Assembly (NCBI GenBank): GCA_001683985.1
Contig: MAEO01000109.1
Coordinates: 1 to 47,987, forward strand
DNA length: 47,987 bases
Direction: 5' to 3'
DNA from: Smithella sp. M82
GTDB taxonomy: Bacteria > Desulfobacterota > Syntrophia > Syntrophales > Smithellaceae
How positions within the stretch are numbered: position 1 is the first letter of the stretch; each line of letters opens with the position of its first letter. The notes beneath the pieces are model-generated. The model saw only the letters and a list, made by a program, of their open reading frames with translations. It had not been told where the DNA came from and ran no database searches. Made by a program: the position numbers and the translations under genes. Shown piece after piece: positions 13,175-13,348 of this stretch.

Positions 13175-13220
13175 TTTTACCCGAATAATCAGGCTGCTTT
13201 CTCTTTTGCTTTGGTCCTGG

Positions 13221-13348
13221 TAGAGCGTTCACAAAATAACATAGCAATTATAGGACAGCCGAGACGGCTGTCCTACCCCTTTGGATGCTTGCAACTTAAT
13301 ACAGTAGGACAGGCGTCTTGTCTGTCACATTATTTAGGAAACGCTCTA
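13221..13348. mobile_element. MITE-like element (TA target, IS630/mariner type) in the 3' end of rplQ
   Basis: A 124-base element (13223-13346) flanked on both sides by TA. The ends are inverted repeats: GAGCGTTTCCTAAATAA on the rplQ side and GAGCGTTCACAAAATAA at the other side (read inward). It contains a perfect palindrome AGGACAGCCGAGACGGCTGT then CCT near 13252-13274 and a related imperfect GGACAGGCGTCTTGTCTGTC. There is no transposase, so it would have to be moved in trans. TA duplication and this end type are as in IS630/Tc1-mariner derivatives. Removing the element and one TA restores an in-frame rplQ tail. Confidence 0.85.

What the first reader, a model, noticed from the sequence alone, without database searches (positions are those of the whole stretch)
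13190..13348. MITE inserted in the 3' end of the essential gene rplQ
TA-flanked 124-base element with GAGCGTT inverted ends sits in rplQ. Its end provides the new stop codon, so L17 ends SRAFPK. The old tail TRTKAKEKAA-stop is still intact beyond it, and removal of element plus one TA restores the frame exactly. A recent insertion tolerated in a core ribosomal gene.
Basis: seen in the sequence. Interest (0 to 1): 0.75.

Follow-up and report, generated by a model that had tools for sequence, protein, structure and literature searches.

The report
Hairpin-carrying mobile element ends ribosomal gene
A 128-base mobile element, with ends like those of IS630-family jumping genes and a pair of hairpin repeats in its middle, sits in the last codons of the ribosomal-protein gene rplQ of a Smithella-like bacterium and supplies that gene's stop codon, likely after a recent jump.

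Summary
In detail: an element with inverted ends (13221-13348, in minus-strand rplQ) supplies the L17 stop codon, and the old tail lies intact beyond it. Two details change. The flanking TA belongs to the element, and the duplicated target is CTGG, so 132 bp were gained, not 126. On that basis the joined flanks give a 136-aa L17, the length of the closest relatives; the TA model gives 138. Six copies at 98-100% identity lie in the host assembly and 0 of 16 congeners have a match, so the insertions are likely recent. New here: the same ends enclose four different palindrome classes in 41 of 41 complete elements from four genomes of four phyla, and the host's core type also occurs in a different shell in relatives. 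IS630-type ends thus appear to carry interchangeable REP-like cores. REP-bearing MITEs and MITE-made C-termini have precedents (Coxiella QMITE2). Verdict: real; a new variant of a known kind; likely harmless to L17, whose tail varies naturally.

The parts
13221..13348 (-). 128-bp non-autonomous element (MITE) inside the 3' end of rplQ
   Evidence: five other copies 98-99% identical in the same assembly
13217..13220 (.). CTGG, one copy of the duplicated target
13349..13352 (.). CTGG, other copy of the duplicated target
13221..13239 (+). end arm TAGAGCGTTCACAAAATAA; resembles the Persicobacter IS630 end CTAG-TATAGCGTTCAAAAAATAAAGT (18 of 22)
13330..13348 (-). end arm TAGAGCGTTTCCTAAATAA; codes RAFPK-stop in the rplQ frame; resembles the Sulfobacillus IS630 end CTAG-TATAGCCATTCCTAAATAACGT (18 of 22)
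13251..13276 (-). core palindrome 1, GTAG at its foot on the minus strand (GTAGGACAGCCGTCTCGGCTGTCCTA)
13304..13326 (+). core palindrome 2, GTAG at its foot on the plus strand (GTAGGACAGGCGTCTTGTCTGTC)
13330..13731 (-). rplQ, ribosomal protein L17, 133 aa as now read (TIGR00059 match at residues 8-116)
13189..13220 (-). displaced old L17 tail (RTKAKEKAA-stop), with one CTGG copy at its edge

Best explanation
The 128-bp element at 13221-13348 has ends matching IS630-family insertion sequences and a core of two GTAG-type palindromes, and it likely jumped recently into a CTGG site in the last codons of rplQ, adding 132 bp. It is predicted to be moved in trans by an IS630-family DDE transposase (cut and paste), since it codes for none itself. 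As now read, the minus-strand end arm gives S-RAFPK-stop, so L17 loses nine residues (RTKAKEKAA) and gains six (SRAFPK) relative to the inferred empty site. The inverted repeat downstream of rplQ (13129-13175) is left in place. The core is inferred to be cargo: the same ends carry other palindromes in other phyla, and the same kind of core sits in another shell in relatives. Shown: anatomy, copies, flanking repeats, matching ends, relatives' tails. Inferred: the transposase, trans mobilisation, recency, neutrality for L17.
For: Copies: six at 98-100% in the host, 0 of 16 congeners. Target duplication: 3 of 6 host copies have identical flanking 4-mers (CTGG, CTGG, CCAG); 30 of 41 complete elements in four genomes do, five of these non-palindromic. 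Empty site: the 132-bp model gives ...EKAKSRTKAKEKAA, 136 aa; the closest relatives have ...EKAKPKTKAKEKAA, also 136 aa. Transposase: a PF13358 gene in the Poribacteria MAG (L220) lies within a 1245-bp element ending in TTCCAAAATAACATTGCAAT / TTCCTAAATAACATAGCAAT, close to the MITE ends of that genome. Of 18 ends from nine IS630 elements, 15 score 12-18 of 22 against the two MITE arms (with two mis-anchored ends re-read); 212 CTAG sites in 42 other loci reach at most 11.
Against: No intact cognate transposase in the host: PF13358 gives a 110-aa fragment and a stop-interrupted gene. IS630 elements are reported to duplicate TA (34 of 39 in vitro insertions of ISY100; PMC2170065 passages), whereas the duplicated host sites centre on TG or CA. 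CTAG duplication is not unique to IS630: MITEPsy1, listed as possibly IS5-like, duplicates CTAG or YTAA (PMC3189936 passages). Three of 6 host copies and 11 of 41 elements have unequal flanks. Three of 18 IS ends score only 9-11 (L219 and L231); one of the 15 good ends (L220) needs a one-base shift from CTAG. The 18 ends are not all independent: L227 and L230 are the same Persicobacter element (1199 of 1202 bases). For two closer relatives, L223 and L224 (54% identity), no comparable end pair was recognised.
Confidence: 0.8

Rival explanations
1. It is a REPIN-like unit moved by a REP-associated tyrosine transposase (RAYT), and the inverted ends are merely a palindromic target into which the doublet inserted.
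For: The core is an inverted pair of GTAG-tagged palindromes as in REPs (PMC2817692 passages, PMC3733652 section 16). The host has four Y1_Tnp matches. GTAG-15 dimers inside long palindromes were described as insertions into target palindromes in Anabaena variabilis (PMC3733652 section 7).
Against: Ends, core and flanking duplication go together: 30 of 41 complete elements have identical flanking 4-mers outside the ends. The ends match IS630 elements. The core motif was not found in the fetched flanks of the four Y1 loci.
Confidence: 0.08
2. One reading: a 124-bp IS630 MITE with a TA duplication directly at GAGCGTT.
For: TA stands at both ends of the rplQ copy, and removing 126 bp keeps the frame.
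Against: Two copies lack TA at one end (L004, L005). Duplicated CTGG, CCAG, TTAG and CTAT lie outside that TA. The 126-bp model leaves L17 two residues longer than its closest relatives.
Confidence: 0.04
3. IS630 element in the strict sense with a 2-bp duplication: 130 bp (GTAGAGCG...CGCTCTAC) plus TG, inside a C-NN-G target. This is a sub-model of the best explanation, not a different mechanism.
For: Same net gain of 132 bp; IS630 elements are reported to duplicate two bases. L070 and L156 (CTAG/CTAT) fit without a mutation.
Against: L136 (TTAG/TTAG) and L150 (CTAT/CTAT) duplicate the outer bases too. TG or CA would replace TA in the host.
Confidence: 0.35
4. Assembly chimera: the repeat joins unrelated sequences.
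For: The MAG has 235 contigs, repeats of this size break assemblies, and host copies L002, L003 and L004 have unequal flanks.
Against: At rplQ both flanks belong to the same gene: the far side matches the relative's tail, stop and following bases, and CTGG is duplicated.
Confidence: 0.03

Closest known systems
IS630 family (Tc1/mariner superfamily) insertion sequences and their MITEs (Correia and RUP elements, named as IS630-derived in PMC2817692; passage seen)
   Same: End sequences match IS630-family elements of a Poribacteria MAG, Persicobacter, Sulfobacillus, Simplicispira, Caballeronia and Polaromonas, with CTAG at the junction
   Different: Duplicated host sites centre on TG or CA, not TA; the core is a palindrome doublet, and no transposase reading frame is left
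Coxiella QMITE2 (PMC5896051; abstract and passages seen)
   Same: A 150-190 bp MITE that contains a GTAG REP; one copy presumably supplies the last 33 residues of a protein, with the stop just downstream
   Different: Direct repeats of 7-11 nt; the passages I saw name no IS630 origin, no core exchange across phyla and no ribosomal gene
GTAG REPs, REPINs and RAYTs (PMC3733652 abstract and sections 7 and 16; PMC2817692 and PMC3116915 passages)
   Same: Inverted pair of GTAG-tagged palindromes
   Different: Enclosed in IS630-type ends and found with them as a unit; the core motif was not found beside the four host Y1 genes
Anabaena variabilis GTAG-15 dimers inside TATAGGA...TCCTATA palindromes (PMC3733652 section 7, read)
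   Same: Same architecture: REP dimer inside a long inverted repeat that starts with TA
   Different: Described there as insertion into palindromes; here a duplication outside the shell indicates that shell and core moved together

Membership tests
IS630-family MITE | ends resemble those of an IS630-family element | tested here: met
   15 of 18 IS ends score 12-18 of 22, 3 score 9-11; background maximum 11 of 212 sites; no end pair recognised for L223 and L224
IS630-family MITE | duplication of the target TA | tested here: inconclusive
   TA centre with identical 4-mers in 27 of 41 elements, but none of the 6 host copies has TA on both sides; the rplQ copy is CTGG/CTGG. 2-bp and 4-bp models give the same 132-bp gain
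IS630-family MITE | cognate intact transposase in the same genome | tested here: not met
   host: 110-aa fragment and stop-interrupted gene only; found in the Poribacteria MAG (L220). The host assembly is fragmented, so this lowers membership without excluding trans mobilisation
IS630-family MITE | short, without a transposase frame, multi-copy, near-identical | tested here: met
   6 copies, 98-100%; six-frame reading of the 128 bp
REPIN (RAYT-moved REP doublet) | inverted pair of GTAG-tagged palindromes | tested here: met
REPIN (RAYT-moved REP doublet) | RAYT gene flanked by the same REP in the genome | tested here: not met
   core motif absent from the fetched stretches around 4 of 4 Y1 matches
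REPIN (RAYT-moved REP doublet) | the doublet itself is the mobile unit, without target duplication | tested here: not met
   duplication lies outside the enclosing ends

The most novel reading that the evidence does not exclude
One IS630-type end pair works as a universal carrier: across at least four phyla the same ends enclose whichever abundant hairpin repeat a genome holds, and one hairpin doublet is found in at least two unrelated carriers with different target duplications. REP-like repeats would then spread by swapping transposon shells, not only by RAYTs.
Probability: 0.4. Interest if true: 0.68.

Novelty: new variant of a known kind. Interest (0 to 1): 0.5.

Why it matters
How REP-like palindromes reach high copy number and cross species is open (my reading; RAYTs are one proposed route). 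Elements in which one conserved set of transposon ends carries different palindromes, and one palindrome type sits in different shells, offer a second, testable route. The rplQ copy is a clean snapshot: a framed insertion whose end arm writes the new C-terminus of a ribosomal protein.

Tried and rejected
Transposases of PF01609 (own genome; six other genomes) and PF13751 (six genomes including the host): no matching end pair in the fetched stretches. Plasmid search with the whole element: no match; with a 34-nt end consensus: seven records with 18-base matches only. Viral contigs: three patterns; one hit two contigs that share one stretch without a second end. Rfam on four loci and on the window: tRNAs only. 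A 1346-bp end pair in L165 held no transposase frame. An in-frame-insertion habit (132 = 44 codons, one of six frames open throughout) was dropped because the commonest Poribacteria element lengths (126 or 174 plus 4) are not multiples of three. Pfam on a 51-aa piece beside copy L003: nothing. Literature searches; in what I saw of them no paper describes exchange of palindromic cores between IS630 shells.

Counting notes. One search replaces (fewer loci; its duplicate filter merged elements of different genomes). One search left out the same-order genome G046: under the same filters it has one pair (257 bp, 7 mismatches, flanks TTCG/TAGT, none of the four core classes), probably a chance pair; its other end matches, and those of G157, G095 and G115, have no partner within 260 bp. 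sees only loci fetched by an end pattern, pairs 80-260 bp apart, at most 9 mismatches in total. One search shows tails for 8 of 15 congeners because the text filter missed 7; one search measures 99 of 120 proteins. The first background wrongly included the IS loci themselves and reached 18; one search left these out but also dropped two loci (L201, L202) without good reason; restores those two (212 sites, maximum 11). L232 repeats the element of L226 and was not scored.

Full report
What is there. The window is contig C61 of a 2.74-Mb, 235-contig assembly. Among the listed relatives of its L17, sequences named Smithella sp. stand at 93% identity, so I call the host Smithella-like. On the minus strand rplQ runs from 13731 to 13330; TIGR00059 matches residues 8-116 of 133. 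An element with inverted ends fills 13221-13348: TAGAGCGTTCACAAAATAA on one side and TAGAGCGTTTCCTAAATAA on the other. The second arm is read in the rplQ frame as RAFPK-stop. Inside are two palindromes, each with GTAG at one foot, in inverted orientation. The single strand folds better than any of 200 shuffles (z -5.2 as RNA, -5.7 as DNA).

Boundaries and target. CTGG stands directly outside both ends (13217-13220, 13349-13352). With the element and one CTGG left out, L17 reads ...EKAKSRTKAKEKAA, 136 aa; the closest congener reads ...EKAKPKTKAKEKAA, 136 aa, and its stop and following bases match the window. Whether the duplication is four bases (128 + 4) or two (130 + 2, as reported for IS630 elements) is not settled: L136 and L150 favour four, L070 and L156 fit two. 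The gain is 132 bp either way.

Likely recent. Six copies at 98-100% identity lie in the host assembly; 0 of 16 congeners have a match at E <= 0.001. rplQ was found in 15 of the 16 congeners; the eight tails that my filter displayed are uninterrupted. Of the 120 L17 relatives listed by the search (a capped list) none has the RAFP end.

Effect on L17. Relative to the inferred empty site nine residues are replaced by six, beyond the conserved domain. In the 99 of 120 listed relatives whose tail could be measured, the length from SILEF to the end runs from 21 to 69; here it is 23. So the change is likely near neutral (inference).

Which transposon. Transposases of PF01609 and PF13751 had no such end pair in the fetched stretches. 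PF13358 (IS630) did: in the Poribacteria MAG that carries many of these ends (58 matches), a 1245-bp element (L220 736-1980) with an open transposase frame ends in TTCC(A/T)AAATAACATNGCAAT, close to the MITE ends of that genome, and abuts CTAG, on one side with an extra base. From 961 plasmid records with related transposases I fetched ten stretches, nine at 48-54% identity and one at 30%. In seven of the nine (Simplicispira, two Caballeronia, two Persicobacter, Sulfobacillus, Polaromonas) ends of the form CTAG-TAG/TAT... resembling the MITE ends were found; in two (Mesorhizobium L223, Bradyrhizobium L224) no such pair was recognised. Of 18 ends scored from nine elements, 15 reach 12-18 of 22 and three reach 9-11 (L219, L231, two mis-anchored ends re-read); 212 CTAG sites in 42 other loci reach at most 11. 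The two Persicobacter elements are one (1199 of 1202 bases). In the host only a 110-aa fragment and a stop-interrupted IS630 gene were found, so the mobilising enzyme is inferred.

The wider pattern. A scan of the GTDB genome collection with one end gave eight loci. Three (L070 Atribacteria, L071 Poribacteria, L074 Nitrospirae) have both ends around hairpin repeats; a fourth (L073, Nitrospirae) has one end followed by repeat-like sequence; the other four have no second end in their 8 kb and look like chance matches. Following these genomes and collecting end pairs without regard to what lies between gave 41 complete elements in four genomes, the six of the host included. All 41 carry one of four palindrome classes (GACAGGCG/GACAGCCG: 6 host and 3 Nitrospirae; CCCCCTTT: 10 and CTTCGCTTCGCTC: 18, both Poribacteria; ATTGCGAG: 4 Atribacteria), and 30 have identical flanking 4-mers, 25 of them CTAG. 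The same-order genome G046, left out of that count, has one doubtful pair without any of these classes. Conversely, the host's core type occurs in relatives G052 and G051 inside a different shell (CCCAAAATAGACATTGA...; nine elements examined, six with an identical flanking 5-mer near the ends, five of these in the same register) and without either shell in the host itself (L007, L008). Core identity between shells is moderate: 60 of 77 aligned columns for host against Nitrospirae (same shell), 45 of 74 for host against G052 (other shell). Shared descent of the cores is plausible but not proven.

Known or new. REP-containing MITEs exist (Coxiella QMITE2, one copy of which presumably makes a C-terminus; PMC5896051, abstract and passages). 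IS630-derived MITEs exist (PMC2817692, passage). REP dimers inside long palindromes were noticed in Anabaena and described as insertions into them (PMC3733652, section 7 read). In the searches named in Tried and rejected I did not see the combination found here: one end pair with different REP-like cores across phyla. I therefore file it as a new variant of a known kind.

Limits. The sample of shells was fetched by end similarity and is small, and 28 of the 41 elements come from one genome. The genomes in which the pattern was counted are, as far as their titles tell, MAGs; repeats of this size are prone to misassembly, and 11 of 41 elements have unequal flanks. The phylum of the host is taken from the Smithella name, not from a tree.

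Noticed in passing
L071 1605-1913 (Poribacteria MAG): Two different elements of the same end type sit head to tail, sharing CTAG junctions, inside a palindromic site (TCAGCACACTAGTGTGCTGA), each with its own core palindrome.
   Followed up: partly
window 13129-13175: Strong inverted repeat (AGCAAATAAAAAAAGCAGGG / CCCTGCCTTTTTTATTTGCT) between the convergent gene ending at 13106 and rplQ, possibly a bidirectional terminator, left intact by the insertion.
   Followed up: no
L003 96-400 (host contig C182): One host copy is followed by a frame reading DAPGVLHHIMIRGIESRKIF, reminiscent (from memory) of Y1, RAYT-like transposases; Pfam gave no hit on a 51-aa piece. Its flanks CCAG/CTAG differ, perhaps by recombination between copies.
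   Followed up: partly
L009, L010, L013, L015-L017, L019, L020 (G052, G051): A second MITE shell, CCCAAAATAGACATTGA, with apparent 5-bp duplications, carries the same kind of palindrome doublet; its ends were not found near the PF01609 genes fetched from G052.
   Followed up: partly
window 13221-13348: One of the six frames runs through the whole element without a stop (ERSQNNIAIIGQPRRLSYPFGCLQLNTVGQASCLSHYLGNAL), and the gain of 132 bp is 44 codons, so some insertions could add a peptide instead of a stop.
   Followed up: partly
window 42538-43947: A 469-aa protein made of many FSPDSKR-type repeats beside a cluster of five tRNA genes (41611-42246).
   Followed up: no
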